Positions 5,085 through 25,503 of a stretch of 64,000 nt of DNA are shown one piece after another. Source of the DNA: Candidatus Poseidonia sp. Lineage in GTDB: Archaea; Thermoplasmatota; Poseidoniia; Poseidoniales; Poseidoniaceae. A program made the translations under genes and the position numbers. Position 1 is the first letter of the stretch. Each line of letters opens with the position of its first letter. The notes beneath the pieces are model-generated. The model saw only the letters and a list, made by a program, of their open reading frames with translations. It ran no database searches and was not told where the DNA came from. Location of the stretch: assembly GCA_030828165.1 (NCBI GenBank), contig JAURDA010000001.1:1-64000 (forward strand). The letters are read 5' to 3'.

Positions 5085-5588
5085 TTAAGCGTCCCGCTTT
5101 GCCTTCTGCGCCAACATGTTGTCACGAATCCGTTTGGCCTTTTCCCATTCCTCTTGCTCCTCGTCGTTCGAGGGTGAGAATTGCGGTACGGGAATCGGGC
5201 GCATCATGGAATCGATGGCGACGAAAAAGAAGTAGCCTTCGCAGATGATCTTCTTTTCCCACGTCGCCTTGCTCATGGTGTAGGCCGTGACTTTGGTGCA
5301 GGCCGTGTGGCTGCTGGTGTAGACCACCTGTCCCGTGACTTCAAGCAGGTCACCTTGCCGAGCGGGGGCGATGAACGTCAGGGTGTCGATGGAGATGGTG
5401 ACGAATTCGCGATGAGCAAACTTCGCACAGGCAATACCGCCAGCCTTGTCCATCAGCGAGAGCAAGCGTCCACCGAACAGGGTGTCGTAGGCGTTGGTGT
5501 CTTGGGGAAACACCTCCTCGATGAGGGTCACGGGTTCGGTGGAATAGGGCTCCATGACTACGGCAAAGGGTCCACCCTCATAATTCAT
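5085..5588 (-). CDS. Acyl-CoA thioesterase, hot-dog fold (YciA/BACH type)
   Basis: Hydrolyses acyl-CoA to free acid and CoA. Seen: the family pattern FPQDTNAYDTLFGGRLLSLMD near the N-terminus, with the conserved N and GG preceding the hot-dog helix, then IDTLTFIAPARQGDLLEVTGQV and SHTACTKVTAY strands. Length of 167 residues is that of a single hot-dog protomer, which usually works as a hexamer. Start at ATG 5588; TTG 5594 is possible, and a later in-frame Met near residue 12 also has a plausible purine-rich leader. Divergent from the giant surface-protein gene, 99 bases away, and upstream of aSelBL by 40 bases. Confidence 0.85.
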   Translation of the reverse strand: MNYEGGPFAVVMEPYSTEPVTLIEEVFPQDTNAYDTLFGGRLLSLMDKAGGIACAKFAHREFVTISIDTLTFIAPARQGDLLEVTGQVVYTSSHTACTKVTAYTMSKATWEKKIICEGYFFFVAIDSMMRPIPVPQFSPSNDEEQEEWEKAKRIRDNMLAQKAKRDA

Positions 5589-5687
5589 CGTCAAGCCAAG
5601 CCGTACGCTGTCGTCATTTCAGTCGCCGAGTCCGAGAAGCGACGGGATTTTATGCGTTCAAAGTGTGGCGGGACCGTAGGTGACACC

Positions 5688-8600
5688 ATGCAAAACGAAT
5701 CACCCCGTAAAACGACGCCAATTTTCTTGATGATGCTGATGGTGCTCGCACCGCTTGCAGCAGCCAACGTCACCAACTTTTCGGACGGCTCCGCTTCGGT
5801 TTCCGTTGAAATCCGGGACGGCGGCGATCTTCAAAACCTCGTCGATGGAAGCATCGACCTTCCCGACGGTGAGACCGTCACCAGTGCCTCTATGAAGGTC
5901 TCCACGACCATGGTCGAGCACGGCGCACAGGTTCGCATTGACACGGATACGATGCCCCGCGTCTGGAATCCGCAATACAACAACCAATTGACCAACTTCT
6001 CCGACCAGTCCTTGTTCCAAATCGAGGACGGTTCCGACGCCACGCCGGTTTCGTTGGCTGCAGAAGGTTACCTCACTGATTTCGAGGGCACCGACGGTGG
6101 ATTCATCGACGCCACGGACCCCGGTGCCATGCCCGCCTCCGGCATCGGTTGGGAACACGGGTCGTTGACATCCTCGGACACGCCCGCCGGGTGCAAGTCC
6201 GGCTCGGAATGTTGGGGGACGAACTTGGGCGACACCAACTACACGGACGATAACAACGGCCAACCCTTCACGGTCGCCATGTTCAGCGAAGAGTTGTTCG
6301 TTGACCCGCTGCTCAAGAGCAAAACGGCCACCTTTGACTCCTGGCACAACCTCGAAGCTCGTGACGGTACCCAACAGAACACGGTTCGTTTTACCGACTG
6401 TGCCTACATGGAAATCCGCGCCTCTCCGAATCCCGGCTTCCCTCCCGGCGCCGTTTACAACCCTCAAGAGTGGGATTTCCTGCCCATTGACGACCAAGCC
6501 AGCACGGGCCTGAGCTTTGGTAGCAACTATGCCCAAGGTGGAAGCACGACCAACGGCCGCATCGGTACGGCGTGCACCAAACTCGCTGACACCGACGGTT
6601 CAGGAACCGACGGATGGGGTCTTGCAGGCTCCTCCACCAACCCAACGTCGAATCCCTCGGGCTGGACCACCATTGCCGTTGACTTGACCGACTACATCGA
6701 CCAGTACATCCAGATTCGCTTTGTGATGCAACACGTCGCCACGCCAAATGACCCGATCGACGACAACATGTCCGGCTGGTACATTGACAACTTCCGTCTT
6801 GGCGACTTGTTGCCCCAAAGCGCCAGCATGACGGTTCGAGGCATGACGCCCTCCGTTCTTGGCGGCGAAAACCACCCCAACGGGTACGGCATCCTCGCCT
6901 TGGAAGCCGAGACCACCTCCTCAGCCACCATCACGGTTGACGTTCTCGACACGAGCGGTAACCAGGTCTACGGGAAGGACGGCTCGGCCATGAGCGGCTT
7001 GCGAGGCGACATCATCGAACTCTGGAACATCGATTCTCAACAGTACCGTGCGGTGAACCTGAAGTTCACCTTCGACTCCGGCCCAGACCGCCTTTCAACG
7101 CCGGTCCTGCACGGCTTCAGCATCGGTTCTCGGGTCGGTACCGGGTTCAACTTCACCGCCTTTGGCCCCTCCACCATCGACGACGGTGTCTGGCAGACCA
7201 GCGGCGGTGGCTTCCCGATGATCTACGCTCCTGAGATCCGCCAGACCGCACACAATCCGGTTCTCGAGCGCAGCAAATTCAGTTACCCCATCACGTCGAT
7301 TCAGCCGATGATTCAAGACGATTGTACGGAGTCCCCGAGCATCGAAATCACGCCGACGGGGTCCAACCGCGTCGTTAATTTGACCGACGGCGTCAAAACG
7401 TCGTTCTTCGATGAGCCGTTGTTTGGTTTTACCTCGGTGACGGCTTACCAAGGCCCCTGCAACGTTGGCGGCATCTGGTTCGACCTTGAGTTTGGCCACC
7501 ATGCAAGCCACATGCGTATCGACGTGGCCGACGACGGCGACGTTGATTACGGGTTCACGGAACCGGCGTTTGACATGTTCGGCCGACAGACCACGTTTGT
7601 CTCAAGCACGGTTGACGGCGTCAACTACGCAACGGATTCCGCTACCCTAACCTTGGATTTGAACGGCGAGGCCAACGGTGGCGTGTTCATGTTGCCCGAA
7701 GGCGCCGAAGTCTCTTCCGCAGACCTCAGCTTCGATCAGGTCAGCATTCGTTCCAACACCGACCCAACCGAAGGGTTCGAGTTGTCCTTGATGGCCGGAT
7801 CCCAATCCGTATCGTTGGGCGACATGCCCAACAGCACGGTTCTCTTCCCCGAGTCGCTTTCCCCTGCGATGGACTTCAAGGCCGCCTTGAATTCGCTGCT
7901 CACCAACCCCTCCGTTGCTGGAACACACCAAGACGAGTTCGGCCGCTACTGGATCAAGTTCCGATTCATGGTCGACTCTCCAAACGCCTCCTCGGGAACG
8001 TCGTTGAACATTGTGAACCTCGACGTCGTCTACAACTATTCGACGACCCTGACCTCCACCGATGGATTGGACATTGAACTCAACCAAGGCGTGGCCTTGT
8101 GGACCGGTGGCGCAACCGCAACGGTGCCCGTTGGCCTGTACACCGACACCGGCGGCGGCGTGTTGCTCAGCGACCTGAACGTCGCCTCAAGCACCGGATA
8201 CAGCAACACCATCGCCATCACCGGCAACCCCGTTGGGCTCTACCCCAACGGCGATATCTACGAAATCGTCACCACGCACACCGTTGACTCGCTGACGGGA
8301 ACCGCGCTCTCCGAGGCTTGGCTGACGTTTGAATCCGAATCGGGCTACATCAAGTTCTCATGGAGCGACTTCATGTCGTTCACCGAGGCCAGCGACGAAC
8401 ACGACCACGTCACGCTTGAATCGACGTCATCGGTCAGCGCCATTACCGACGGCTACGAAGTCACCTGGCATTTCCGTGTCAACCCGACTTGGGACGACAC
8501 GGAAGCGGTTCGGGTGTACGCTGGATTGACCACGGCGAACAACATCAACGGCTTGCCGGACGCTGTCTTGCTCGACCCTTCCGTTGGAAATGCAGTGGAG

Positions 8601-11573: not shown

Positions 11574-11582
11574 GGCCCTCCG

Positions 11583-12389
11583 ATGGCCGGACCGCTGGAT
11601 TGGGCAGACCCGGAGTGGTCCGACCCCGACGGTGGCACCGTGGTGCTTCACGGGACCTTACCCACCGTGGTGTACCCCAATGTTTTGCGCCCACGCTACG
11701 CTTGGGACGGTCTGGCGTTGCTTGAAACGCCCGACGTGGTTGAGTTATGGGAGCAAGAAGAGGCGGACGAGGCCGAATCACAGGGCGTCAATCTCACGTA
11801 TGCCATGTTGTCCGGAGGAGCGTTTGGCCGGTATGCCGAGGGCATATCGATGCTTTCTGAACTTCAAGGTGGACGTTTTCCCGACCCCGAACCGCGTCGC
11901 TTGCAGCGCAACGCTGCGCGGCACGACCGACCCGTGTTCTTTTTGGAACCGATGGCCGATGACCCGGAGTGGAACGATTTCTTGACCCGTGAAGCCAAAG
12001 TCATGTCCCACTGGAAGAAACTGCTCAGCATGGTTCGCATCAAGAAACGGTGGAAAAAGGCCGTTAAGCGCCATATCTTCGGCATCACGCCTCCCCCCAA
12101 GGGTCAATCAGCCGACTACGCCAGTGCGAGCGTCATGGCTTCGGCTTGGTGGGACATCAACTGCGAGATGAGCACGCCCTCGCTGAACCAGGAACGGAAC
12201 GACCGATACGCTGCTCGCCTCCGAGGGGCGCTCGCATCGCTTCGGTCCACGCACGGCGACGAGGCCGTGCTGATGTTGGTCGTCCACCAGCCGCAACGAG
12301 AGGCGTTGTTGGCGTCGTTGAGAGGCCTCCCCGCTGCGGAGGAGATTTCATCAACATCCACCGACACCCTGCACTCGGAGGAGGAATGA
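11583..12389 (+). CDS. Conserved hypothetical protein, possibly TraB-like
   Basis: Function unknown. The 268-residue soluble protein starts with an acidic segment, has an early HGTLPTVVYP strand-turn, a basic middle (KKRWKKAVKRH) and a C-terminal part NQERNDRYAARLRGAL followed by a hydrophobic strand VLMLVVHQPQREALL. That last arrangement resembles the end of the TraB/PrgY family (ERN, then a strand with a His before a helix), but other family hallmarks are not obvious, so the link is tentative. It starts 9 bases after the giant surface-protein stop with GAGGCCC as leader and ends one base before the GTG of the TBP-like gene, so translation of the two is probably coupled. Confidence 0.6.
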   Translation: MAGPLDWADPEWSDPDGGTVVLHGTLPTVVYPNVLRPRYAWDGLALLETPDVVELWEQEEADEAESQGVNLTYAMLSGGAFGRYAEGISMLSELQGGRFPDPEPRRLQRNAARHDRPVFFLEPMADDPEWNDFLTREAKVMSHWKKLLSMVRIKKRWKKAVKRHIFGITPPPKGQSADYASASVMASAWWDINCEMSTPSLNQERNDRYAARLRGALASLRSTHGDEAVLMLVVHQPQREALLASLRGLPAAEEISSTSTDTLHSEEE

Positions 12390-12390
12390 C

Positions 12391-12933
12391 GTGGCCGCCG
12401 GTTCCATCGATGTTCGGGTTGAAAACCAGCTCGTCCGCTTCATTTGTCCTGTTCGTATCGATCCTGACCGCGTCGTGGCCGAGTTGGGAGGGACGAGAAA
12501 CAGCGGCGTGGTCATCAAGGCCATGGACCGCCCCCGTGCAACGATCGTCATCGACGAGGAAGGTCGCATCGTGGTTCATGGGACCCACCGGGTTGAGGCA
12601 GCACGTGCAGCAGCCAAGGAACTCTTGCTTCGCTTGGGCATGGACGACAACGGCTTGGTTGCGGAAATGGGTCCGGTGGTGGCTTCCTTCAAATTTGAAA
12701 ACGACATCAACCTTCAGGCCATCCCGGCACAGTTGCCCTCCGGAACGGCGGTGTACGACGCTCGACTTGGGTGCACGGTCCTCTCCGATGAACGTCACAA
12801 CTTGACCGTGAACATTTGGCCCAACGGCACGTGCGTCGTTTCCGATTCCCGTCACGCCAACATGGTGGCCATGGCTGCCGTGTATTGGAAATCGGTCTTT
12901 GCGGACCGTGGGTTCTTCGTTGAACGCCTTTGA
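12391..12933 (+). CDS. Divergent TATA-binding-protein-like protein
   Basis: Looks like the two-repeat TBP fold. At 180 residues it has the usual archaeal TBP length, and repeat 1 shows the TBP signature order: GVVIKAMDRPRATIVIDEEGRIVVHGTHRVEAARAA, where RPRATIVID takes the place of the canonical PK-x-LIF strand. Repeat 2 (residues about 95-175) has NLTVNIWPNGTCVVSDSRH in the equivalent place. The aromatic residues that kink DNA in true TBPs (Phe pairs) are replaced, so it may not bind TATA boxes. GTG start at 12391 with a strong GGAGGAGG leader overlapping the previous stop. A standard TBP is expected elsewhere in the genome; this may be a paralogue or a TBP-fold protein with another role. 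Confidence 0.6.
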   Translation: MAAGSIDVRVENQLVRFICPVRIDPDRVVAELGGTRNSGVVIKAMDRPRATIVIDEEGRIVVHGTHRVEAARAAAKELLLRLGMDDNGLVAEMGPVVASFKFENDINLQAIPAQLPSGTAVYDARLGCTVLSDERHNLTVNIWPNGTCVVSDSRHANMVAMAAVYWKSVFADRGFFVERL

Positions 12934-12943
12934 GGTTGAGCCC

Positions 12944-13822
12944 ATGGTCTACGACGGCCCCGTGCTCGACAATCATTTCCACCTCAACCGGCGTGGGTTG
13001 TTTCTTGATGCAGCGCGTGGGTTCAAACAAGCCGGTGGGACGGACGTTGTCTTGGTGCACTGTCCGGATTTTTCAGCACCACCAGAAACGTATGATGGGC
13101 ATCGAGAGGCGTATGCGGACACCCTCGCCATGGCCCAAAGCGTCCGCACCGAAGTTGAGTTGGGCGTTCGTGTTGTTCTGGGGCCGCATCCAGCAGCCTT
13201 TGCTCACCAATTTGAGCGATGGGTGGCGGAGGAGGGTCAATCCGGTCGTGAGCGAGCCGTTCAGAATTACCGCCATTCCATTGACGCAGCGCTCCACTTT
13301 GTCCACGAAGGTCAAGCCCATGCCATCGGTGAGGTCGGTCGGCCTCACTGGCCGGTTTCCGATGAAATTTGGGATTTATCCAACGAATTGCTCGAAGAGA
13401 CCATGCACCTCGCTGCACAGGAGGGCATCCCTTTGCAACTCCACGTCGAAGGTGAATCGGCGTCCACGTATCCCGACCTCGCCCAGCGAGCGGTCCGACA
13501 AGGCATGGATTTGCTGAAACTGGTTCGTCATTACTCGCCCCCCGACGTGCGATCCGAGAACACCCACGGGTTGACGCCCAGCGTTCTTTGCGGAAAAGGA
13601 GCGATTGAGCGGTTGTTGGAAACCCACGAAGCCGCCCGCAACGGATTCTTCCTCGAGACCGACTACATGGACGACCCACGTCGTCCAGGCGCCGTTCTTG
13701 GACCGAAAACCGTGCCCAAGCGAACCCGCCAACTTCTCGAGGGAGGCATGGCCGAAGAGGTGCTTTGGCACACCCATCACGACCTGCCGATGAAGGTCTA
13801 CGGGGCTTTGGAAGACGTGTAG
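12944..13822 (+). CDS. TatD-related metal-dependent hydrolase
   Basis: Amidohydrolase-superfamily protein of the TatD DNase branch, found in archaea with uncertain substrate. Seen: the N-terminal metal motif DNHFH (residues 9-13, counterpart of DxHxH), AIGEVGRPHW with the bridging Glu near residue 129, LQLHVEG with the third His, and ETDYMDDP with the C-terminal Asp. ATG 12944 is selected because GAGGTTGAG precedes it and DNHFH then sits at the usual distance from the terminus; the frame is open further upstream into the TBP-like gene. Ten bases separate it from that gene, consistent with one operon. Confidence 0.78.
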   Translation: MVYDGPVLDNHFHLNRRGLFLDAARGFKQAGGTDVVLVHCPDFSAPPETYDGHREAYADTLAMAQSVRTEVELGVRVVLGPHPAAFAHQFERWVAEEGQSGRERAVQNYRHSIDAALHFVHEGQAHAIGEVGRPHWPVSDEIWDLSNELLEETMHLAAQEGIPLQLHVEGESASTYPDLAQRAVRQGMDLLKLVRHYSPPDVRSENTHGLTPSVLCGKGAIERLLETHEAARNGFFLETDYMDDPRRPGAVLGPKTVPKRTRQLLEGGMAEEVLWHTHHDLPMKVYGALEDV

Positions 13823-13896
13823 GAATCAACGACCGTTCGGCGCAATTCTCCCATCACATTGATGAAAGAGGATTTGCAGGCAACGATGTGAGCGCC

Positions 13897-14979
13897 ATGC
13901 CCCGCCGAAGCCGCTGGCCGTTGCTTGTCGCGCTCTTGTTGTGCGGATTGCTCCTCCCTCTCGGAGCCGCTCAACTCCCGACCGCACCCGGCGTTGAGAT
14001 CGATTGCGAGGACAAGCAACCGGAACTCGACGTCCATCCGCTCAACGACCCGGAGGTGACCATCACCTGCACCGTGCGAAACCCTTCTTCCTTCCAAGAA
14101 TCCATCAGCGTCGAAAAAGAATGGGACGGGATGGAAGTCGACATGATGCTCGAGGAAGATACTTTTGACCTCGGTCCCGATGAAGAAGAAGACTTCACCG
14201 TCACCTTCTCAGGACAAACCCGCCTGTCCGCATCGCTTTCCTACGACTTTACTCTGGTCGCCACCGTCACCAACGTGGGGATGCTTGATTGGCCGGAAGC
14301 CATGGCTTCCAATGCAAGCGTGAGCGGCGACCTGAACATCGCCTCCTACGGCATGGTTGAACTGGACATCTCCGACAAAAGCACGCGAACCATGCAAGAA
14401 GACGATGAAGTCAAAATCACCTTCCAATTTCAAAACAACGGCAACGATGACGACAAGATTCGGGTGAGCATCGCTAACGCTGCAGAACTCGAAGAGGTTG
14501 GATTCTCGTTCCCCGGAGGCACGTTTGTTGCTGAAAACGTCGTTGAGGACGGAACTTCCACGGTTCGTGAATTGACCGTTCGGGCACCTTCCGATGTTCT
14601 TGTTGACGAACGCTACCAATTGGTGTTCCAAGCCCAGAGCGAAAACGACGATGAGGCACCGGTCATCGAGAGCACGGTCTCCATTCAACTCGAGGCAGGC
14701 AAGACCGCTGGAGGCCTTGGCGGTGGCCTTGAAGAGGTGGACAAGGACACGGTCGTCCTGTACGGCAGCATCGGTGCTGCGGTCATCTTTGGCTTGGTGT
14801 TCGTTGCCGCCTTCGCACGTGCTCTTCGTCGTAGAGCCAACTCACAACCGATGTACGTCCCCCCTGTCGAGGTCCCTGACGAACCCGAAGATGACGACCT
14901 CGACCTCTCCGAGTTGGACGATTTGTTTGCCGATGAAGAAGACGGTGACGACTTCGATTCGGTCTTTGCCGATTTGTAG
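13897..14979 (+). CDS. Secreted, membrane-anchored protein with CARDB-like domains
   Basis: Exported protein of unknown role. Seen: signal peptide (WPLLVALLLCGLLLPLGAAQ), ectodomain with Cys pair near the start (EIDCEDKQ, TITCTVRN), two beta-sandwich units of CARDB/NEW3 type (VTITCTVRNPSSFQESISV; KITFQFQNNGNDDDKIRVSI), a single membrane helix near residues 285-305 (LYGSIGAAVIFGLVFVAAFA), a basic stop-transfer RALRRRAN and an acidic cytoplasmic tail (DDDLDLSELDDLFADEEDGDD). Start at ATG 13897; GTG 13888 in frame is an alternative. Architecture matches the 5.7-11.6 kb surface protein, so both probably belong to the cell envelope. Confidence 0.75.
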   Translation: MPRRSRWPLLVALLLCGLLLPLGAAQLPTAPGVEIDCEDKQPELDVHPLNDPEVTITCTVRNPSSFQESISVEKEWDGMEVDMMLEEDTFDLGPDEEEDFTVTFSGQTRLSASLSYDFTLVATVTNVGMLDWPEAMASNASVSGDLNIASYGMVELDISDKSTRTMQEDDEVKITFQFQNNGNDDDKIRVSIANAAELEEVGFSFPGGTFVAENVVEDGTSTVRELTVRAPSDVLVDERYQLVFQAQSENDDEAPVIESTVSIQLEAGKTAGGLGGGLEEVDKDTVVLYGSIGAAVIFGLVFVAAFARALRRRANSQPMYVPPVEVPDEPEDDDLDLSELDDLFADEEDGDDFDSVFADL

Positions 14980-15064
14980 GCGGTTCACGCCACCGCCCGC
15001 CCTTGTCCGCCGCCGCTGAACTCGGCCGATGTGCCCCGATTTTAGGAGGAACACTCAAAGGCTT

Positions 15065-15082
15065 GGTGTAGCGCACTACACC
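15065..15082. promoter_or_regulatory. 18-bp inverted repeat ahead of the fabI-megasynthase operon
   Basis: Perfect 7-bp arms GGTGTAG and CTACACC separated by CGCA, 21 bases before the fabI ATG. A weak TATA-like GATTTTAGG at 15039-15047 would place the transcript start inside or next to it, so it fits a repressor operator over the start site; it could also fold as a 5'-UTR hairpin. No regulator gene is adjacent. Confidence 0.5.
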
Positions 15083-15103
15083 TGTTCCCCAAGGGTGTTT
15101 TTC

Positions 15104-15895
15104 ATGTTGGGACTTGAAGGAAAAACAGCGTTCGTGTTTGGAGTTGCCAGTGAAGACTCCATCGCTTGGGCGATTTGCAAGCAACTTGCGGCTGCGGGCG
15201 TTACGCTCTATTTGGGCTATCAAAAGCGGTTCATGAGCCGGATTTTCCAACTCAAAGACCAGCTCCCCGCCATCGGGGGGTTCTATCCCTTGGACGTCTC
15301 CTCAGACGCCACCACCAAGGAATTCTTCACCGCTTTTGCAGCAGATCACCCCGGAAAAAAGGCAGACATCCTCATCCACGCCATCGGTTTCGCCCCACGT
15401 TCCTGCTTTGACCGCCCCATCCTGTTCGTTGAAGACGAGGACATCAACACCGCCATGACCATCTCGGCCAACTCCTTACAGCGCTGCCTCAAACACGCCT
15501 TGCCCTACTTGGCCGACGGCTCCTCGACCATCACCCTGACGTATGCGGCCTCCAATCGGTTCGTTCCGAGTTACGGCATCATGTCGATGGCCAAAGCGGC
15601 CTTGGAGTGCTGGACGCGGGAGTTGGCCTGTCATCTCGGTCCCGAGGGTCACCGCATCAACGCCATCTCCTCCGGACCCATCCGAACCATCGCTGCGAGC
15701 GGTATACCCGGTTTTGACCGAATTCTCGACCACGTGGAAGCCAACGCTCCGCTACGGCGCAACGTGAGCCAAGACGATGTCGCCGGAGCAACGCTGTGGC
15801 TCGCCAGTCCGCTCGCAGGTGGAGTGACGGGCCAGTGCATCTACGTCGATGCGGGCTATTCGATCACGATGGTGCCGGAGAGCATCATGAACTGA
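15104..15895 (+). CDS. fabI: Enoyl-[ACP] reductase, FabI type
   Basis: Reduces the 2-enoyl thioester at the end of each fatty acyl elongation cycle with NAD(P)H. The 263-residue protein is an SDR of the FabI branch: divergent nucleotide loop VFGVASEDSIAWAI near residues 11-24 (FabI lacks the usual TGxxxGxG), and the catalytic Tyr147, Tyr157 and Lys164 spaced Y-x9-Y-x6-K, the E. coli FabI spacing (146, 156, 163). C-terminal VTGQCIYVDAGYSI is also typical. ATG 15104 follows AAGGGTG and gives the expected N-terminus. It is the first gene of an apparent operon, nine bases before the megasynthase, which itself lacks an enoyl reductase domain, so it probably works in trans with it. Confidence 0.87.
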   Translation: MLGLEGKTAFVFGVASEDSIAWAICKQLAAAGVTLYLGYQKRFMSRIFQLKDQLPAIGGFYPLDVSSDATTKEFFTAFAADHPGKKADILIHAIGFAPRSCFDRPILFVEDEDINTAMTISANSLQRCLKHALPYLADGSSTITLTYAASNRFVPSYGIMSMAKAALECWTRELACHLGPEGHRINAISSGPIRTIAASGIPGFDRILDHVEANAPLRRNVSQDDVAGATLWLASPLAGGVTGQCIYVDAGYSITMVPESIMN

Positions 15896-15904
15896 GGTGA
15901 GAGC

Positions 15905-18900
15905 ATGGGGTTGACCACGGAAGACGGCAAACCTTGCGAGGGGATTGAACAAGGCCCGTTTGAACCCGTTGCCATCGTGGGTCTCGGGGCGCTCATGCCC
16001 GACGCTTCGGACATCGATGCCTTTTGGGACAACATCTTGAATGCGAAAATCAGCATTCGTGAATTGCCCGAAGGTCGATGGCCGGGGCCGACTGAGCATT
16101 TTTGGAAAGAAGGCGGACCGGGCGAGCACACTGAAGGGTACACCTATGCGAAAATTGGGGCGCTTGTGGAAGGTGCGGAGTTTGATTGGCGACGCTGGCG
16201 CCAACCGCCGGGGACGCTGCCCCAAATCGACCCCTGTCAACAGTGGGCCGTGACCGTCTCGGCCGACGCCATCGAGCACGCAGGATACGACGGGGAAGAG
16301 CGAGACATCGACCGAACCCGAACGGGCGTGGTGTTCGCCAACGCTTTGGGCGGTGAAAACCGAAACATGTCAAACATCCGTGTATGGTCCAACCACACCA
16401 CGACCCTCGCCAAGGAGCACGGTCTGCCTGCAGACAAGGCCGATGCGTTCCAGGATGCCGTTTTGGAAGGCACGCCGAGGGTTGACGAAGACACCATGCC
16501 CGGAGAGCTGGCGAACGTGGTTTCGGGTCGCGTGGCGAATTTGCTCGATTTGCAAGGTCCCAACCACGCCATGGACGCAGCGTGTGCTTCCTCGATGGCG
16601 GCCGTCCTCGATGCCTGCCGATTGTTGCAGACGCGACAGGTCGACGTCATGCTGGCCGGTGCTGCTGACCGGACGATGGATCCGGCCACCTTTGCGAAAT
16701 TTTCAGCCATCGGGGCCCTGTCACCCACGCATTCCTCCCCGTTCGATGCTCGGGCCAACGGCTTCGTCATGGGCGAAGGTGCGGGGGTTCTCGTCCTCAA
16801 GCGCTTGAGCGACGCGATTCGTTCCGGCGATGAGATCTACAGCGTGATTCGCGGCGTCGGCGGCTCTTCGGATGGCCGAGGCAAAGGCATCACGGCGCCG
16901 AGTCAACGGGGTCAAGTGCAAGCCATCGCCAGGGCGTACAGCCAAGCCGGATATGCACCGTCAAGCGTTGAATTGGTGGAAGCGCACGGGACCTCGACCA
17001 AAGTTGGAGATGCTACCGAACTTTCGACCCTCTCTCGGTTGTGGACGGGAGTCGAGGGCACCGGCAAAGTCGCCGTGGGTTCCATCAAGTCCCAGATCGG
17101 CCACCTCAAGGCCGCAGCCGGCATTGCTGGCATCATGAAATCGGTGATGGCGCTCCACCATCGAACCATTCCCCCCAGCGCCAATTTCCAGACGCCCAAC
17201 CCTACCGTGGATTGGGGCGCTATCCCGTTCTTCGTTCCCACCCAGCCCTTGGACTGGCCACGTCCCGCCGACCATCCTCGCCGGGCAGGCGTTTCCGCGT
17301 TCGGCTTTGGAGGCACCAACTTCCACATCGCTTTGGAAGGATACGAGCCCGATTTCCACGCTCCTCTGGCCGCCCAGTGGGAGGGTCGATGGCAGGCGTA
17401 CAGCGGACAGGGCGATGCAGCTGCACCATCCGTGTTCGATGCCTCGCTTTCGCCAACCCTCACCCATGAAGCCCTCAAAGCGATTGAGGGCGGCGTGTTG
17501 CTGCGCTCGGCTGCCTCGGTTGAGGCTTTGAGCGCCGATCTGGCTTCGCTCAGTTTCGAAGGCCCGTTGTTTGACGACGACCCTCGCGGCTTGCGGCTCT
17601 CGCAGGCGCTTCAGGAAGCCAGCGAGGCTTACAACGTGGGCCACCCCGTACGCTTGGCTTTGGTGGCGACCTCGTGGGCCGAATTCACAAAACGTCAGTC
17701 CTTGGCCGTCCAAGCGATGGGCGACAAGGAAAAGTGGGGCTTTTTGCAAGCCCAAGGTGTCTTGCTCACGGACGAGGCAGCGCTACCCCCCGAGGCGAAA
17801 GCCGTTCACATGTATCCCGGTCAAGGCAGCCAATACGTCGGGATGACCGCTGACCTCGTCAAGCGATTCACTGCGCCGGACGATGTTTGGCGTCAAGCCG
17901 ACGAGACGATGGTCGAGGTGCTTGACGGCGAAACCCTCTCCAGTTTTGTGCTGCGCTCGGACCTCTCCAAAGAAGAGCGTCAAGAAGCCGAGCACAAACT
18001 CAAGCAAACCGAATACACCCAACCGGCCATGCTCACGGCCGATTTGGCCATTGAGCGCACCCTGAACGCCTTCGGTCACCAACCCGATATGGTCGCAGGG
18101 CACTCCCTTGGAGAATACGCAGCGCTGATGTCATCGGGGATTTTGGATATGGACGGTGCGTTGCGAGCCGCCGCTGCGCGGGGCACCGAGATGGGCTCGG
18201 TCGTCATCGACGACAAGGGCCTCATGGCGAGCGTGACCGCACCGTACGCCGAAGTCGAAGCGGTTTTGGAGGCGACCGACGGCTACGTCATCGCCGCCAA
18301 CAAGAATTCGCCAAAGATGACGGTCATCGCCGGTGAAACCGCCCCCGTTCGGGCGGCCATGGCGTCGTTTGAAGCGAAGGGTTTCTCGTGCGTTGAACTC
18401 GCTACTTCACACGCCTTCCACTCAAGAATCGTGGCTCCTGCCAACGAACCGCTGCGCCGATTTTTGGAAGGCCTGGAGATTCGCTGGCCCAGCGTCCCCA
18501 TCACCGCCAACGTTGACGGGACGTTTTATCCGACGAAGGGAGAGGAAGCCAAGGCTGCCATTTTGGAAAAACTTGCACCACAGATGGCGTCCTCGGTGGA
18601 ATGGACCAAGCAGATCGAGACCATGTACGGTGCCGGAGGGCGCCTTTTCGTTGAAGTCGGGCCGAAACGTGCGCTGACGATGTTTGCCATGCAGATCTTG
18701 GAAGGCAAACCGCACGTTCCCGTCATGACCAATCATCCCAAACAGGGCGGAATCGCTTCGTTTTTCACGGCCATCGGGGCCCTTGCGTTGGCCGGCCGCC
18801 CACCCGAATGGCCTGCTCTCGACTCCCCTTCCCTCCAAGACGCCTTCAAGGCCGGTCCAATCGAAGCCCAAGGGGGCGCCGGTTTGGTCGCTTCTTCGAC

Positions 18901-21900
18901 CACAGCAGAACTCGAAGCACTCCGTGTGCGTGCCCGTCCGCTGCCCGGAAGCGGCTCGCCTGCGCCGTCAGTGCCTGCGAATTCAGCCGTGATGGCACCC
19001 CCCTCCAACGACGAGCCCGCTCTTGGTCGAGCGATACGAGGCTACGTCGGTGACCGCATCGCCGCCTTTAGCGGGTATCCAGCATCGTTCTGTCACGGTC
19101 ATGTGGCTCTTGTTGACGGGTTGGGTTTGACGCCTGCGCAAGTGCAACAGGTTGCCGCAACGCTCGCTTCGGAAGCGACGACTGACCCCGAAGTCGACGG
19201 CTATGCCGCGGTGACGGCTGGCGATTTTGAACGCTGGGTTCGCCGCCCTCCTGCAACGTGGCGCCCGATGGCTTCCGTCACCGCTCCTTCGTCTCCAATG
19301 AACGTCCCCGTTCACACGGTTGGCGCGCTTCAAACCGCTTCACGCCGGGACCAAGACCCCTACGTCGTGACGGGCGTCTCGTTGGGCCTGCCGGGAATGG
19401 ACCGGGTGTTTTCAGAGGATGCGTTTGAGAAGCTTGTTCGCGGCGAGACCTGCATTAGCGAAGTCTCGGATGAATACAAACAACGCCTGCTCGACAAGAA
19501 CATCGTTCGGCTGATCAAAGGACGTGACGGCTCGGTGAACATGGACCAAGCCACCGTGTTTGGCGATATCCCGCAACTTGCCGGTCTCAAAGGGGCCTTT
19601 GACCTCGCCGACGAGTTTGGCATCGACCCCAAAGCGATTGTCGCTTGGGACATCAGCACCCAACTGTCCGTGGCCGCAGGCCTCCTTGCTCTGCGTGATG
19701 CTGGTATTCCGCTCACGCCGGTGGAGCAGGTCGGAAAGGGCGGGCTGAGGCTGATTCGGAACTGGCAGGTGCCTCAAATCCAGCGAGAGCGAACGGGGAT
19801 CGTCTTCTCCTCCTGTTTCCCGGGCCTCCAAATGGCCTCAAAACATGCGAAATCCAACGGGGATGACGGCGAGGGACGCTTTGACCGGCGCTACCTCTTC
19901 CAAACGCTGAACATGGGCCATTCCCAATTCGCTCAGTACACCGGTATTCGAGGCCCCAACACCACGATCAACCTCGCTTGTGCTTCGGCCACCGCCGCCT
20001 TTGGCGTCGCCGAGGATTGGCTTGATGCGGGCCGTGTCGACCGCGTGGTCATCATCAGCGGTGACGATGTGACGGGAGACGATCTCTGGGAATGGATTGC
20101 CGGTGGCTTTGCCGCGTCGGGCGCCGCCGCGACCAACAACGTCGTTGAAGAAACCGCACTGCCCTTTGACCGTAGACGCAACGGGCTGATTTTGGGGATG
20201 GGCGCCGCTGCGTTCGTCGTGGAACGGCATTCGGAAGCCCAGCAAAGAGGCGTCCAGCCGATCGCCGAATTCCTCGGTTCAACCACGGCAAATTCGGCCT
20301 ACCACGGCACCCGGCTTGACGTTGAACACGTCGGGCAGGTCGTGAACGAGTTCATTACGAGCATGGAGCGGCGCTGGGGCTTTGACCGGCACCAAATCGC
20401 CCCCAACACCGTGTTCTACTCCCACGAAACCTACACGCCAGCGAGAGGGGGCTCGGCCCAATCGGAAGTGCGGGCTCTGCGGGAAACCTTTGGCGACTCA
20501 ACGAACAAACTGGTCATTGCCAACACGAAAGGATTCACCGGCCATCCGATGGCGGTGGGCATTGAAGACGCGAGCATGTTCTACGGTCTCTTGACCGGTC
20601 GGCTGCCCCCCATCGCCAACCACAAGGAGAAGGACCCCGAATTGGGAGATTTGAACCTCTCCACCGGTGGCGATTATCCAAACGTGACCTATGGGCTTCG
20701 CTTTGCAGCCGGCTTTGGGTCGCAAATAGCGCTCTCGCTGATGCGAAAATGGCCGGTGGAAGGCGACCGCATCGACGGTGGGAAGTTGCTCGCTTGGGCC
20801 CGAGGACTCGCCGGAACGGACGATGTTGTCATGCGGGTCTTGCAAAACAAACTCGTGGCCTACGTCAACGGAGACGACAATTTGCACGGCGGCGTTCAAG
20901 GCGATGCTTGGCTCCCTACCGAGGCGTGGGAAGGAAAACCCTCTGCGCAACCGGTCGTCGCCTCAACACCCGTGGCGACCGAACCCGCGGCGCCCTCGGT
21001 GGCTGAACCACCGGCAACGCCACCCGCACCAACTCCGGCCCCTCCTGCGCCCGTTGTTGGCGATGCAGACATGATTTCAACGGTCGTGGACGTGGTGGTT
21101 CACCACACCGGTTACCCGGCAGATTTCGTTGAGCTGGACCAGGACCTTGAGGGCGAATTGGGCATCGACACGGTGAAACAAGCCGAGATCATGGCGGACA
21201 TCCGGGAACGATTCTCCCTCCCTGTCGACGAAGACTTCGTTCTTGCCGATTATCCAACCCTCAACCACATGATCGGCTACATCCAGCGCATGACCGGCGG
21301 CGAAGCCGCCCCTGTTGTGGCGCCCGTTGCCGCCGCCACGTCTCCCGTAACCCTTCCTGAGGCCACCCCGCAGCCAGCAAACGAAAGCGCTCCATCTGCG
21401 CCCCCGGTTGAGACGGTTGACGACGCTACGATGGTTGAAACCGTTGTTTCGGTGGTCGTTCATCACACCGGTTACCCGGCCGACTTTATCGAACTCGACC
21501 AAGACCTCGAAGGGGAATTGGGCATTGATACGGTGAAGCAAGCCGAGATCATGGCGGACATTCGGGACCGATTTTCGCTCCCGGTCGACGAAGACTTTGT
21601 CTTGGCGGACCACCCTACGCTAAACCACATGATCGGGTACATCCAAGGGATGAAGGGAGGCGCCTCCAAGGCCGCTCCAAGCGTCGTTTCCCCGCCCTCC
21701 CCGTCAAATGATCAACCGATGGCTGAACCCAAATCCGCTCCGCCCGCTTCATCCCCTGCTCCGGTCGCGACGGGCGGCCACGACGAGATTGAATCCGTGT
21801 TGGTCGAAGTGGTGGTCAACCACACGGGCTATCCTGCGGATTTCATCGAGATGGACCAGGACCTCGAGGGTGAACTTGGCATTGACACGGTGAAACAAGC

Positions 21901-24736
21901 TGAGATCATGGGGGAGATTCGGGAACGCTTCTCCTTGCCGGTCGACGAGGACTTCGTGTTGGCCGACCATCCAACGCTCAACCATTTCACGGCCTACATC
22001 GTGAGGATGCAAGGCGGTGATGCAGCGGCAACCCAAGCGGAATCCAACGCTGAAGCCTCACCAGCCTCAGCCCAAGCCCCAGCATCGGCGCCTGCCGAAT
22101 CGGTGGCCACGGGCACCCGTCGGTGGCAGGTTGAGGTTGAAGCCTGTCCGGGCGTGCATTCCCCGCTTTCCCTTTCGGGAACGGTTGTGGTTTCCGATGA
22201 CGGTTGGGGCATCGCCGAGGCCTTCTGTCAACGCATGGAGGCAAGAGGTTTGAAGGCCGTGCGCGTTGGTTTTGAAAGCAAAATCAGGGACCCATCTCGG
22301 CTTGAAGAAAACGGAAGGGTGGTCCTCAGGGCCGACCCGGAACAGCCCGAGCATCTCCAATGGATCGCCAGCGAACTCAGCGAAACCGCCTTGGCGGCCT
22401 TGGTTCACATGGCGCCAATAAAACTCGCCTCTGAACAATGGGGCGAGGACACCTACCCTTCCTCGCAGGTTGCCCTTGCCGCTCACGGATGGTTTGGACT
22501 GCTCAAGGAGTTGGGCGGGCATCTTTCAACCGAAAAGCCGGGGCTTGTCGCCTCGGTCACGGCCCTTGACGGACGCCACGGAAACATCGGCGACCGGTTC
22601 AACGCCGTTCAATGCGCTGCGAGCGGCATCACGAAATCCTATGCGTTTGAGCGCCCTGATTTGCGATGCCGTGCCTTGGATTTGCATCCTGACGTGGTAT
22701 TGGACGAAACGGCCGCTGCTGAAGCCATTGAGCACGACTTGTTCGGTCTCGACGGCGAGGTTGAGGTCGGTCTGGACCGTGACGGTCGCCGATGGGCACT
22801 CGTCGCCTTTGCGGAAGACGTCGTGGACGAGGTGAAACCGCTGACAGCGGCCGATACGTGGCTCGTCTCGGGCGGAGGCTCGGGCGTGACGGCTGCGTCC
22901 ATCATCGGGGTGGCGAAGGCTTCGCCGAAAGCCGGGGCGCATTTCGTCTTGCTCGGTCGTTCGGTGCTCATCGAATCAACCGAATCTTGGATTGATTGGA
23001 CGGAAGCCCAATTGACCGAAGAGAAGAACGCTTTGCGACAGCGCCTCGTCGATGCGAGCGATTCAGGCAAAGTAACGATGGTGGAATGGAACAAAGCATG
23101 GCAGGCCTTCACGCGAAGTTGCGATGTTTACCGGACGCTCCACGTCATTCAGCAAACCGGAAACACCGCTGAATACCGGTCCGTGGACGTCATGGACGCC
23201 GACGGTTTGCGTGACCTTGGCTCTTCGTTGGGCCGCCCCATCACCGGGGTGGTTCACGGAGCGGGCTTGGAAGATTCCAAGTTGGTCGCTGACAAAGGCT
23301 ACGACGTCTTTGATCGTGTGGTCCGCGTCAAGGTTGACGGCTGGCGTGCTTTGCTGGGAGCCGTGAACGCCTCGGGATTGGACGTCCCTGAATTTGCGTG
23401 TTGTTTCACGAGCGTCGCTGGACGGTTCGGCAACGGTGGGCAAACCGATTATGCGGCGGCCAACTCGATTCTTGACGCTGAAATGGCCCGTTTGACCGCG
23501 ACCTCTTCAGCTCGGGGGGTCGCCATCGGTTGGACCGGCTGGCGGGACGTCGGCATGGCGACTCGTGGGTCCATCGAAGCGGTTTTCGCCGCTGCGGGCA
23601 TTGAGACGTTGGCGGTGGACGACGGCGTCGCCATCTTCGTCGCCGAGGCGTTGCAGGGCGGCAAGCGACGCGTTCTGGGCTGCGGCTCGCTCGGGCTGAT
23701 GGACCGATTCTCGTCTTTCCGAGAAGCCCCGGTGAAGTTGCCTTCACCGATGTCGGAGTTGATGGCGGACCCGTCCCGTTTCCCGTTCATTGACAAGATG
23801 GTTGAACTGGAAGAACACGAGCGTCTTGTCTCGCAATGCACGCTGTCCACTGAAGACCATCCGTTCCTCATCGACCACGCCATCGAAGGCGTTCCTTACC
23901 ACCCCGGCGTGATGGCGTTGGAGATGTTTGCACAAAACGCCCTGTTGTTGCGCCCCACCACTTGCCTTGCAGGGTTTGAGGACGTGGCGTTCGGCCTCCC
24001 CGTGAAACTTCTCAAGGGACCGATAACGGTGCGTGTCGAGGCTGAGTATCTTCGTTCCAAAGACGACATGACCTGGGTGCGTTGCCGCTTGGTTTCGGAT
24101 TTGACGAACTCAAAAGGCGAGCGTTTCGGTGAGCGAGAACACCACGTGGCCACGGTTCGTCTGGTCAACAAGCAGGAAGACCTTCGGCCGTTTTTGCAGC
24201 ATGAAGTCGAAGCGTTGCCCACGATCGGCACGCCGCCGGGCGGTGTGTTGCTCCACGGCCCCGAGTTCATCTATTCGCGATATTTCCACGGGCCCCGCTT
24301 CCAATCTCACGGTGGCGTGCTCGCTGGGTTTGGTGACGAGAATGCCATCGGCATCGATGGCGTGGCCCTGATGCGCCATCAACTTCCGGCCACCGATCAG
24401 TTTGCTAACGAGCAAGCCGGCGAGACGGTGCTGCTCGAAGCCCTGCCCATGCTCATCGAAGCCGGCTTCCAAAATGCCGGTTTGGTGGCCATGGAATCGC
24501 TTGGATACAGCAGCCTTCCCGTCGGCATCGCATGGTCCACCATGCTTCGCGTTCCTGAAGCGGACGAACACCTTCGTCTCCGCAGTTTGCAAACGGCTCA
24601 TCACGACGACGGCGTCACCGAGCACGATGTGTTGATCGTCGGCGAGGACGACGCGCCCGTGCTTTCCCTCAAGGGATTGAAACTGAAGGCCATGGCCACG
24701 GTTGAAGAGGGCCAACGGTTCTCGCTCGAGCGCTGA
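15905..24736 (+). CDS. Multidomain fatty-acid/polyketide synthase: KS-AT-KS-ACPx3-KR-DH (2943 aa)
   Basis: Iterative type I synthase related to bacterial PfaA/PUFA-like enzymes. Domains by residue: KS1 about 20-470 with Cys227 (DAACASS), His361 (EAHGTST), His400 (IGHLKAA); AT about 630-940 with GQGSQ and Ser734 (GHSLGEY); linker with a weak carrier-like stretch near 1035-1115; KS2 about 1150-1640 with Cys1359 (LACASAT), His1507 (YSHETYT) and His1547 (FTGHPM); three carrier domains at about 1720-1797, 1839-1917 and 1959-2036; KR with an N-terminal structural half, about 2060-2590, NADPH loop SGGGSGVTA, Ser2503 and Tyr2516; double hot-dog DH about 2630-2935 with His2652 (DHPFLIDH), YHPGVMALE and FHGPRF. 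No enoyl reductase or thioesterase domain. In all three carriers the usual pantetheinylated Ser is Thr (GIDTVKQ; 1756, 1876, 1995). Flanked by FabI and a phosphopantetheinyl transferase. Product is unknown; a saturated or partly unsaturated fatty acid is the simplest reading. Confidence 0.93.
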   Translation: MGLTTEDGKPCEGIEQGPFEPVAIVGLGALMPDASDIDAFWDNILNAKISIRELPEGRWPGPTEHFWKEGGPGEHTEGYTYAKIGALVEGAEFDWRRWRQPPGTLPQIDPCQQWAVTVSADAIEHAGYDGEERDIDRTRTGVVFANALGGENRNMSNIRVWSNHTTTLAKEHGLPADKADAFQDAVLEGTPRVDEDTMPGELANVVSGRVANLLDLQGPNHAMDAACASSMAAVLDACRLLQTRQVDVMLAGAADRTMDPATFAKFSAIGALSPTHSSPFDARANGFVMGEGAGVLVLKRLSDAIRSGDEIYSVIRGVGGSSDGRGKGITAPSQRGQVQAIARAYSQAGYAPSSVELVEAHGTSTKVGDATELSTLSRLWTGVEGTGKVAVGSIKSQIGHLKAAAGIAGIMKSVMALHHRTIPPSANFQTPNPTVDWGAIPFFVPTQPLDWPRPADHPRRAGVSAFGFGGTNFHIALEGYEPDFHAPLAAQWEGRWQAYSGQGDAAAPSVFDASLSPTLTHEALKAIEGGVLLRSAASVEALSADLASLSFEGPLFDDDPRGLRLSQALQEASEAYNVGHPVRLALVATSWAEFTKRQSLAVQAMGDKEKWGFLQAQGVLLTDEAALPPEAKAVHMYPGQGSQYVGMTADLVKRFTAPDDVWRQADETMVEVLDGETLSSFVLRSDLSKEERQEAEHKLKQTEYTQPAMLTADLAIERTLNAFGHQPDMVAGHSLGEYAALMSSGILDMDGALRAAAARGTEMGSVVIDDKGLMASVTAPYAEVEAVLEATDGYVIAANKNSPKMTVIAGETAPVRAAMASFEAKGFSCVELATSHAFHSRIVAPANEPLRRFLEGLEIRWPSVPITANVDGTFYPTKGEEAKAAILEKLAPQMASSVEWTKQIETMYGAGGRLFVEVGPKRALTMFAMQILEGKPHVPVMTNHPKQGGIASFFTAIGALALAGRPPEWPALDSPSLQDAFKAGPIEAQGGAGLVASSTTAELEALRVRARPLPGSGSPAPSVPANSAVMAPPSNDEPALGRAIRGYVGDRIAAFSGYPASFCHGHVALVDGLGLTPAQVQQVAATLASEATTDPEVDGYAAVTAGDFERWVRRPPATWRPMASVTAPSSPMNVPVHTVGALQTASRRDQDPYVVTGVSLGLPGMDRVFSEDAFEKLVRGETCISEVSDEYKQRLLDKNIVRLIKGRDGSVNMDQATVFGDIPQLAGLKGAFDLADEFGIDPKAIVAWDISTQLSVAAGLLALRDAGIPLTPVEQVGKGGLRLIRNWQVPQIQRERTGIVFSSCFPGLQMASKHAKSNGDDGEGRFDRRYLFQTLNMGHSQFAQYTGIRGPNTTINLACASATAAFGVAEDWLDAGRVDRVVIISGDDVTGDDLWEWIAGGFAASGAAATNNVVEETALPFDRRRNGLILGMGAAAFVVERHSEAQQRGVQPIAEFLGSTTANSAYHGTRLDVEHVGQVVNEFITSMERRWGFDRHQIAPNTVFYSHETYTPARGGSAQSEVRALRETFGDSTNKLVIANTKGFTGHPMAVGIEDASMFYGLLTGRLPPIANHKEKDPELGDLNLSTGGDYPNVTYGLRFAAGFGSQIALSLMRKWPVEGDRIDGGKLLAWARGLAGTDDVVMRVLQNKLVAYVNGDDNLHGGVQGDAWLPTEAWEGKPSAQPVVASTPVATEPAAPSVAEPPATPPAPTPAPPAPVVGDADMISTVVDVVVHHTGYPADFVELDQDLEGELGIDTVKQAEIMADIRERFSLPVDEDFVLADYPTLNHMIGYIQRMTGGEAAPVVAPVAAATSPVTLPEATPQPANESAPSAPPVETVDDATMVETVVSVVVHHTGYPADFIELDQDLEGELGIDTVKQAEIMADIRDRFSLPVDEDFVLADHPTLNHMIGYIQGMKGGASKAAPSVVSPPSPSNDQPMAEPKSAPPASSPAPVATGGHDEIESVLVEVVVNHTGYPADFIEMDQDLEGELGIDTVKQAEIMGEIRERFSLPVDEDFVLADHPTLNHFTAYIVRMQGGDAAATQAESNAEASPASAQAPASAPAESVATGTRRWQVEVEACPGVHSPLSLSGTVVVSDDGWGIAEAFCQRMEARGLKAVRVGFESKIRDPSRLEENGRVVLRADPEQPEHLQWIASELSETALAALVHMAPIKLASEQWGEDTYPSSQVALAAHGWFGLLKELGGHLSTEKPGLVASVTALDGRHGNIGDRFNAVQCAASGITKSYAFERPDLRCRALDLHPDVVLDETAAAEAIEHDLFGLDGEVEVGLDRDGRRWALVAFAEDVVDEVKPLTAADTWLVSGGGSGVTAASIIGVAKASPKAGAHFVLLGRSVLIESTESWIDWTEAQLTEEKNALRQRLVDASDSGKVTMVEWNKAWQAFTRSCDVYRTLHVIQQTGNTAEYRSVDVMDADGLRDLGSSLGRPITGVVHGAGLEDSKLVADKGYDVFDRVVRVKVDGWRALLGAVNASGLDVPEFACCFTSVAGRFGNGGQTDYAAANSILDAEMARLTATSSARGVAIGWTGWRDVGMATRGSIEAVFAAAGIETLAVDDGVAIFVAEALQGGKRRVLGCGSLGLMDRFSSFREAPVKLPSPMSELMADPSRFPFIDKMVELEEHERLVSQCTLSTEDHPFLIDHAIEGVPYHPGVMALEMFAQNALLLRPTTCLAGFEDVAFGLPVKLLKGPITVRVEAEYLRSKDDMTWVRCRLVSDLTNSKGERFGEREHHVATVRLVNKQEDLRPFLQHEVEALPTIGTPPGGVLLHGPEFIYSRYFHGPRFQSHGGVLAGFGDENAIGIDGVALMRHQLPATDQFANEQAGETVLLEALPMLIEAGFQNAGLVAMESLGYSSLPVGIAWSTMLRVPEADEHLRLRSLQTAHHDDGVTEHDVLIVGEDDAPVLSLKGLKLKAMATVEEGQRFSLER
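21064..22020 (+). repeat. Three tandem acyl-carrier repeats in the megasynthase gene
   Basis: Three copies of a roughly 80-residue carrier module separated by Pro/Ala/Ser-rich linkers, with the GIDTVKQAEIM core at 21161, 21521 and 21878 (spacing 360 and 357 bases). The copies are nearly identical over the core at both protein and DNA level, as expected for recent duplication or gene conversion; tandem carriers are a hallmark of PUFA synthases. Confidence 0.85.
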
Positions 24737-25503
24737 TGGTGGTGTCCATGACGGGCATGACGGAATTGAGTTCACCCGTGCCCGGCGTCCGCCTCTTTGC
24801 AAGTCCCGTGCACGCTCATGCTCTCGCCGACGTCCCGCTGGCAGACGCCGGCGAGGTGGCGACGTTTGCAACCGAGAAACGGCGCAACGAACACTTGACC
24901 GGACGGTGGTTGCTCGGCCAAGCCCTGATGGCGCACGGAGAGCGGGATTTGTCCGCCCTGGAGGTCCTGCGAAGCGAACAGCGTGCTCCGTCACTTGCCT
25001 TCATCCAAGGTGCGTGGCGGCGTACACCGTTGCCGTCCATCTCCATCGCTCACAGCGGCGGAAGGGCGGTGGTGGCGTTGGGTCCTGCTGGCCGATGCAT
25101 CGGCATTGACCTCGAACCGTTGGAGCGTGCGTTGGCTCAAAACGCGTTTGATCTCATCGCCAAAGGCGAGGAACTTGAACAACTTCGGCTGCATCCTGAA
25201 CAGGCCATGCGGTTGTGGACGGGGAAGGAAGCGGTTCAGAAAGCGATGGGTTTGGGGATGCACCTCAACCCGAGGGATATTCAAATTCCAATTGATAACA
25301 ATAGGAGTCAGATTCCAATTGAAAAATCAAAAATCCAATTGGAATATTGGACTGACGAGGAGTATCATTTTTCCCTCGCCTCTCGACCAAAACCAGTCCC
25401 CGAACGCACGCCCGAGGACGTGCTCTTGGACCAAACCAAGGCGGCGATGAACGCCAATCCCGATTGGGGCGTGGGTTGCAACACCCAACGAAACGCTCGG
25501 TAA
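24736..25503 (+). CDS. 4'-phosphopantetheinyl transferase (Sfp/AcpT type)
   Basis: Moves 4'-phosphopantetheine from CoA to carrier proteins. Seen: the paired family motifs CIGIDLEPLE near residue 120 (Mg/CoA site; usually GIDIE) and LWTGKEAVQKAMG near residue 162 (W-x2-KEA-x2-K), and ISIAHSGGRAVVAL just before the first. Start ATG overlaps the megasynthase stop by one base (TGATG), strong evidence of translational coupling and of the substrate being that enzyme. Length 255 is Sfp-like. Odd: residues about 183-206 are encoded by an AT-rich stretch with three TCCAATTG repeats, unlike the rest of the gene, and the reading frame continues through it. Confidence 0.88.
   Translation: MVVSMTGMTELSSPVPGVRLFASPVHAHALADVPLADAGEVATFATEKRRNEHLTGRWLLGQALMAHGERDLSALEVLRSEQRAPSLAFIQGAWRRTPLPSISIAHSGGRAVVALGPAGRCIGIDLEPLERALAQNAFDLIAKGEELEQLRLHPEQAMRLWTGKEAVQKAMGLGMHLNPRDIQIPIDNNRSQIPIEKSKIQLEYWTDEEYHFSLASRPKPVPERTPEDVLLDQTKAAMNANPDWGVGCNTQRNAR
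25283..25350 (+). repeat. AT-rich TCCAATTG triplicate inside the PPTase gene
   Basis: The octamer TCCAATTG occurs at about 25287, 25315 and 25334 within a stretch that is mostly A and T, in a gene and neighbourhood that are GC-rich. Encoded residues are QIPID, QIPIE and KIQLE. It keeps the frame and lies just after the KEA motif, where family members have a variable loop, so it looks like a small in-frame expansion or insertion. Confidence 0.6.

What the first reader, a model, noticed from the sequence alone, without database searches (positions are those of the whole stretch)
15104..25503. Complete fatty-acyl/polyketide megasynthase operon in an archaeon
Three consecutive, coupled genes encode FabI, a 2943-residue KS-AT-KS-ACP3-KR-DH protein and a phosphopantetheinyl transferase. 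Together these give condensation, acyl loading, carrier, ketoreduction, dehydration, enoyl reduction and carrier activation, i.e. a full reductive cycle; only product release is not visible. Archaea as a rule lack ACP-dependent fatty acid synthesis. The layout resembles bacterial PfaA/PUFA synthases (tandem carriers, AT, KR, hot-dog DH) but differs: two KS domains flank the AT in one chain, and the reductase is a FabI rather than PfaD. I do not know a described system with this exact order.
Basis: partly seen in the sequence, partly recalled or inferred. Interest (0 to 1): 0.92.

Follow-up and report, generated by a model that had tools for sequence, protein, structure and literature searches.

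The report
Archaeal fatty-acid megasynthase with threonine carriers
A group of marine archaea carries a complete one-operon machine that looks built to make fatty-acid chains, and its carrier domains hold a threonine where textbook carriers have the serine that anchors the working arm, although the cell's only arm-attaching enzyme is encoded right beside it.

Summary
In detail: three coupled genes encode FabI, a 2943-aa KS-AT-KS-ACP3-KR-DH protein and a PPTase. The operon is archaeal: same locus beside a TBP-like gene in both families of the order, present in a closed 2.06-Mb relative, under strong purifying selection (dN/dS 0.07). The layout is not undescribed. It matches the bacterial "Type R secondary lipid synthase" (KS-MAT-CLF-ACP(3-6)-KR + PPTase; Shulse & Allen 2011); at least 570 candidate relatives turned up in the genome collection. 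Unreported in the papers I could read is the carrier chemistry: all three carriers read LGIDT, with threonine at the pantetheine site. In bacterial relatives 174 of 174 identified copies are Thr; a Ser/Thr-neutral scan of Acidobacteriota gives 44 of 44. Within archaea Ser reappears at least twice, and one protein mixes both. In Poseidoniales the operon's PPTase is the only detectable PPTase and these are the only detectable carriers. Most likely: a malonyl-fed iterative fatty-acyl synthase whose arm sits on threonine. Modification of Thr, KS2's role and the product are inferred, not shown. Verdict: new variant of a known kind, well worth a mass-spectrometry test.

The parts
15104..15895 (+). 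FabI-type enoyl-ACP reductase (263 aa)
   Evidence: Pfam PF13561 231 bits; best PDB matches are enoyl-ACP reductases, top 1ulu 7e-57; Y147-Y157-K164; adjacent to the megasynthase in every archaeal order locus that reaches that side
15905..24736 (+). 2943-aa megasynthase KS1-AT-psiACP-KS2-ACP3-KR-DH
   Evidence: NCBIfam best model PfaA TIGR02813, 861 bits against a cut-off of 1010
15962..17476 (+). KS1 (PfaA-type ketosynthase), C227/H361/H400
   Evidence: (TIGR02813 358 bits)
17804..18742 (+). AT, GHSLGE with HAFH (malonyl-type)
   Evidence: FabD model 195 bits
18992..19279 (+). degenerate carrier-like domain (psiACP) without an attachment residue, conserved in Poseidoniales
   Evidence: AF2 pLDDT 89.5; Foldseek best matches are acyl carrier proteins, probability up to 0.99 but E 0.08 or worse; alignment A3
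19337..20839 (+). KS2, FabF-like ketosynthase with intact C1359/H1507/H1547
   Evidence: AF2 pLDDT 89; FabF fold TMt 0.88-0.90; C215, H363 and H403 of the domain invariant in 31 homologs
21083..21283 (+). ACP1, attachment residue Thr1756 (codon ACG 21170-21172)
21440..21643 (+). ACP2, Thr1876 (ACG 21530-21532)
21800..22000 (+). ACP3, Thr1995 (ACG 21887-21889)
22832..23584 (+). KR (GGGSGVT, S2503, Y2516)
23702..24724 (+). double hot-dog dehydratase, H2658 and E2852
24736..25503 (+). 4'-phosphopantetheinyl transferase; the only one detected in the genome
   Evidence: PF01648 4e-11; sole genome hit; GIDLE and WTGKEA motifs

Best explanation
An iterative type I fatty-acyl synthase of the Shulse-Allen Type R kind, native to Poseidoniales. 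The operon's PPTase puts 4'-phosphopantetheine on the threonine of each tandem carrier. The AT loads malonyl from malonyl-CoA; KS1 and KS2 condense; KR, DH and FabI reduce the beta-carbon fully, giving a saturated acyl chain. The chain is probably handed from the carrier to a PlsC-family acyltransferase, which would explain why no thioesterase is seen. Shown: the genes, intact catalytic residues, archaeal and ancestral location, selection, threonine at the attachment position, and that this is the only detectable PPTase and carrier set in the cell. Inferred: that Thr is modified, that KS2 condenses, chain length, and transfer to a glycerolipid.
For: Architecture and catalytic residues. Vertical and archaeal: present in nearly all f1 genomes and several f2 genera, 97 of 390 in the phylum, and a one-contig genome; synteny with a TBP-like gene across both families. 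dN/dS 0.07; ACP1 dN 0.006 against dS 0.79. The Thr aligns with the pantetheine Ser of 2cnr and with the X (non-standard residue, taken as the modified Ser) of 1f80. Bacteria 174 Thr to 0 Ser; Acidobacteriota 44 to 0 with a neutral pattern; all four Thr codons used. At least two Thr/Ser switches on the tree plus one mixed STTT array, so Ser and Thr look interchangeable. One PPTase per genome and no carrier outside the megasynthase, including closed genome G073. PPTase fused to the synthase in L138, L139, L145. Neighbours supply malonyl-CoA and an enoyl step in relatives. PlsC-like acyltransferases in 59 of 59 genomes; one subfamily found only with the synthase.
Against: No biochemistry. From memory (not checked here), Ser-to-Thr ACP mutants have been reported as not pantetheinylated by standard enzymes. 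f2 genera without the synthase still have PlsC-like genes and also lack G1PDH, so it cannot be the only route to acyl lipids in the order. The acyltransferase correlation may reflect few evolutionary events and fails in g7. KS2's equivalent was called CLF by Shulse & Allen.
Confidence: 0.72

Rival explanations
1. The Thr carriers are not pantetheinylated. They form an inert or scaffolding array, and the PPTase acts on some unseen Ser carrier or has another role.
For: Carriers described in the papers read use Ser (PMC13291983, PMC4882568).
Against: No other PF00550 carrier in 58 relatives or in the closed genome; the weak hits in G073 are an antisense frame and a SAP-like domain. PPTase and synthase are co-inherited apart from explained cases and fused in relatives. 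ACPs are under strong selection. Ser and Thr swap within orthologs.
Confidence: 0.13
2. The product is a specialised (secondary) lipid, polyketide or polyene rather than a plain saturated membrane fatty acid.
For: The family is classed with secondary-lipid synthases; the synthase is patchy in f2, whose synthase-free genera survive.
Against: KR, DH and a dedicated FabI allow full reduction; no FabA-type DH/isomerase (PF07977), as PUFA synthases have, was hit; the genome has no other detectable carrier or PPTase for fatty-acid synthesis.
Confidence: 0.35
3. KS2 is not an elongating enzyme but a chain-length factor or malonyl-decarboxylating starter domain working with KS1.
For: Shulse & Allen labelled the equivalent domain CLF; KS2 is divergent (138 bits to FabF, against 226 for KS1).
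Against: The Cys-His-His triad is invariant in 31 aligned homologs; the fold is closest to FabF.
Confidence: 0.4
4. A bacterial fragment mis-binned with archaeal DNA.
For: Relatives are common in bacteria.
Against: Same locus next to a TBP-like gene in both families, present in a single-contig genome, own deep clade apart from bacteria.
Confidence: 0.01

Closest known systems
Type R secondary lipid synthase (Shulse & Allen 2011, PMC3098273)
   Same: KS-MAT-second KS-tandem ACP-KR in one chain, PPTase next door, ACC genes nearby in relatives
   Different: Archaeal; second KS keeps its catalytic triad (theirs called CLF); C-terminal DH not listed for Type R; FabI partner; Thr carriers not mentioned there
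PfaA of bacterial PUFA synthases (TIGR02813)
   Same: KS-MAT-tandem ACP-KR-DH order; KS1, KR and the region around it match the model
   Different: KS2 and psiACP inserted after AT; Thr instead of Ser; below the family cut-off (861 of 1010 bits); no PfaB, PfaC or PfaD in the operon
Fused NMO-KS-AT-KS-ACP2-KR-DH-PPTase protein of another Thermoplasmatota family (L145)
   Same: Same core order and Thr carriers
   Different: Enoyl reductase candidate is an NMO/FabK-type domain and the PPTase is fused
Bacterial KS-AT-KS-ACP-KR-DH proteins with acyl-CoA dehydrogenase and ACC neighbours (e.g. L124, L060, L049)
   Same: KS2 about 48-52% identical, Thr carriers
   Different: No FabI homolog found in any bacterial locus fetched; an acyl-CoA dehydrogenase sits upstream in those scanned

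Membership tests
Type R secondary lipid synthase | KS-MAT-(KS/CLF)-ACP(3-6)-KR in one chain | tested here: met
   DH is an extra domain
Type R secondary lipid synthase | PPTase gene directly downstream | tested here: met
   24736-25503, overlapping stop/start
Type R secondary lipid synthase | KS1 clusters with the published Type R sequences (Koribacter, Solibacter, Roseiflexus) | tested here: inconclusive
   The named strains were not in hand; related Korobacteraceae and Solibacteraceae members (L113, L117) share the family but lie in a separate clade from Poseidoniales
Bacterial PUFA synthase (PfaA) | NCBIfam TIGR02813 cut-off of 1010 bits | tested here: not met
   861 bits
Bacterial PUFA synthase | FabA-type DH/isomerase domains (PfaC) and PfaD in the operon | tested here: not met
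   no such domain in the three genes or in the flanking genes scanned
Acyl carrier protein (PF00550) | domain score above the gathering cut-off | tested here: met
   three domains over the cut-off
Acyl carrier protein (PF00550) | serine carrying the 4'-phosphopantetheine | tested here: not met
   Thr at the aligned position in all three
Functional holo-carrier | arm attached to the residue | not testable with these tools
   needs protein mass spectrometry
FabI enoyl-ACP reductase | Y-x9-Y-x6-K motif and SDR family match | tested here: met

The most novel reading that the evidence does not exclude
A cross-domain family of megasynthases uses threonine instead of serine as the natural 4'-phosphopantetheine attachment residue, served by dedicated PPTases. 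In Poseidoniales it is the cell's only carrier-based system, and it makes fatty acyl chains for a bacterial-like or chimeric membrane in archaea that lack detectable glycerol-1-phosphate dehydrogenase.
Probability: 0.5. Interest if true: 0.88.

Novelty: new variant of a known kind. Interest (0 to 1): 0.78.

Why it matters
Serine is treated as the universal anchor of carrier proteins; a large natural family with threonine, plus natural Ser forms and a mixed array, is a ready-made experiment on carrier and PPTase chemistry. It also names a concrete enzyme for a long-open question: what lipids Marine Group II archaea make, since they lack detectable G1PDH, yielded no archaeal intact polar GDGT lipids in waters they dominate, and carry PlsC-like acyltransferases (PMC6962369). 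A cell with one PPTase and only Thr carriers makes the test clean.

Tried and rejected
Mis-binning: rejected by synteny, a closed genome and a separate clade. PUFA synthase proper: rejected by the model cut-off and the absence of FabA-type DH and PfaD. Decayed pseudo-operon: rejected by dN/dS 0.05-0.07. Other carriers in closed genome G073: sub-threshold hits were an antisense frame inside a PKD-like protein and a SAP-like domain. Using 'of' with locus ids failed and was repeated via G402. Paper searches for Thr-ACP and for Poseidoniales PKS found nothing on point.

Full report
What is there. The window carries three same-strand, tightly coupled genes: FabI (15104-15895), a 2943-aa megasynthase (15905-24736) and a PPTase (24736-25503). 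Pfam, NCBIfam and PDB searches support KS1, AT, a second KS, three carriers, KR and a hot-dog dehydratase, with catalytic residues in place. The AT carries the HAFH sequence typical of malonyl-specific domains (established knowledge of AT motifs). Modelling shows the AT-KS2 linker (residues 1030-1125) to be a fourth carrier-like fold with no attachment residue (AF2 pLDDT 89.5; Foldseek best matches are acyl carrier proteins with probability up to 0.99, although E-values are only 0.08 or worse). KS2 models as a FabF-type ketosynthase (pLDDT 89), and its Cys-His-His triad is invariant over 31 homologs.

It belongs to the archaeon. A full-length protein search found it in 41 of 59 relatives: 28 of the 30 genomes of the window's genus (the other two are 67 and 70 percent complete), all five other genera sampled in family f1, and four genera of f2. 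Across the phylum 97 of 390 genomes have KS2, including several families outside the order and a 2.06-Mb single-contig genome. The same upstream genes, one of them a TBP-like protein, flank it in f1 and in f2 genera g10, g12 and g14; g7 has it without that upstream block. A tree of KS1-AT-KS2 puts Poseidoniales in one clade and the sampled bacteria in another, with other Thermoplasmatota between. dN/dS is 0.05-0.07.

It is not a new layout. Nonomuraea and at least 570 candidate relatives in the genome collection encode homologs; the 80 kept are bacterial and mostly show the same order. Shulse & Allen 2011 named KS-MAT-CLF-ACP(3-6)-KR plus PPTase 'Type R', with an ACC gene between the two in Koribacter. 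Where I scanned bacterial neighbours I found acyl-CoA dehydrogenase upstream (L049, L124), ETF (L080), single-chain acetyl-CoA carboxylase downstream (L124, L060) and PPTase (L080). The enoyl-reduction partner seems exchangeable: acyl-CoA dehydrogenase in bacteria, a fused NMO-type domain in L145, FabI in Poseidoniales; that these partners do the same job is inference.

The odd chemistry. All three carriers read LGIDTVKQAE. The Thr aligns with the serine of solved ACPs, and with the non-standard residue X of 1f80. In 81 bacterial loci selected by KS2, not by carrier, 174 identified motif copies are Thr and none Ser; a Ser/Thr-neutral DNA pattern over 199 Acidobacteriota genomes gives 44 Thr, 0 Ser. 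All four Thr codons occur, so selection is on the residue. In archaea, genera g5, g7 and g14 have Ser (TCN codons), the tree needs at least two switches, and L143 has one Ser and three Thr carriers in one protein. Ser and Thr therefore look exchangeable in orthologs at the same job.

Why Thr is probably loaded. Poseidoniales genomes have one PF01648 PPTase, the operon's, where they have the synthase, and none where they lack it; the three synthase-positive exceptions are a contig end (G023) and the diverged g7 PPTases, which phmmer still detects at 29-37 bits. Every PF00550 carrier above the cut-off lies in the megasynthase. In closed genome G073 there are three carriers, all Thr, and one PPTase. 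The PPTase is fused to the synthase in L138, L139 and L145. A conserved PPTase with only Thr substrates, and Thr carriers under strong selection, are hard to explain otherwise. This remains an inference until mass spectrometry is done.

What it may be for. All 58 relatives tested lack G1PDH by PF13685 at the family cut-off, and all have PlsC-like acyltransferases (59 of 59) and carboxyltransferases (58 of 58). One acyltransferase subfamily of about 540 aa was found only in genomes with the synthase, though this may be few events and g7 lacks it. Field work found no intact polar GDGT lipids where Marine Group II dominates, and earlier genome work proposed fatty-acid-containing membranes (PMC6962369; PMC7852524). 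The synthase is a concrete candidate acyl source, but f2 genera without it survive with PlsC-like genes, so it is not the only route.

Noticed in passing
window 18992-19279: Degenerate carrier-like domain between AT and KS2 in the Poseidoniales compared, lacking Ser or Thr at the attachment site; not evident in the Nonomuraea homolog.
   Followed up: partly
L143 (G086:C17), megasynthase residues 1953-2244: Natural mixed carrier array, one LGIDS and three LGIDT in one protein.
   Followed up: partly
L145 (G088:C1) 5376-15203: Single-chain NMO-KS-AT-KS-ACP2-KR-DH-PPTase in another Thermoplasmatota family: a near-complete synthase in one polypeptide.
   Followed up: partly
G000:C34 around 9137 (L157 4925-6622): PlsC-like acyltransferase of about 540 aa whose subfamily occurs only in synthase-bearing Poseidoniales (absent in g7).
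   Followed up: partly
window 12391-12933: TBP-like protein conserved next to the operon across the order.
   Followed up: no
L151 (G390, genus g5): Synthase of an f1 genus groups with f2 sequences and is Ser-type: possible transfer within the order.
   Followed up: no
window 5181-11573: 2130-aa ORF without any Pfam match, conserved upstream of the operon.
   Followed up: no
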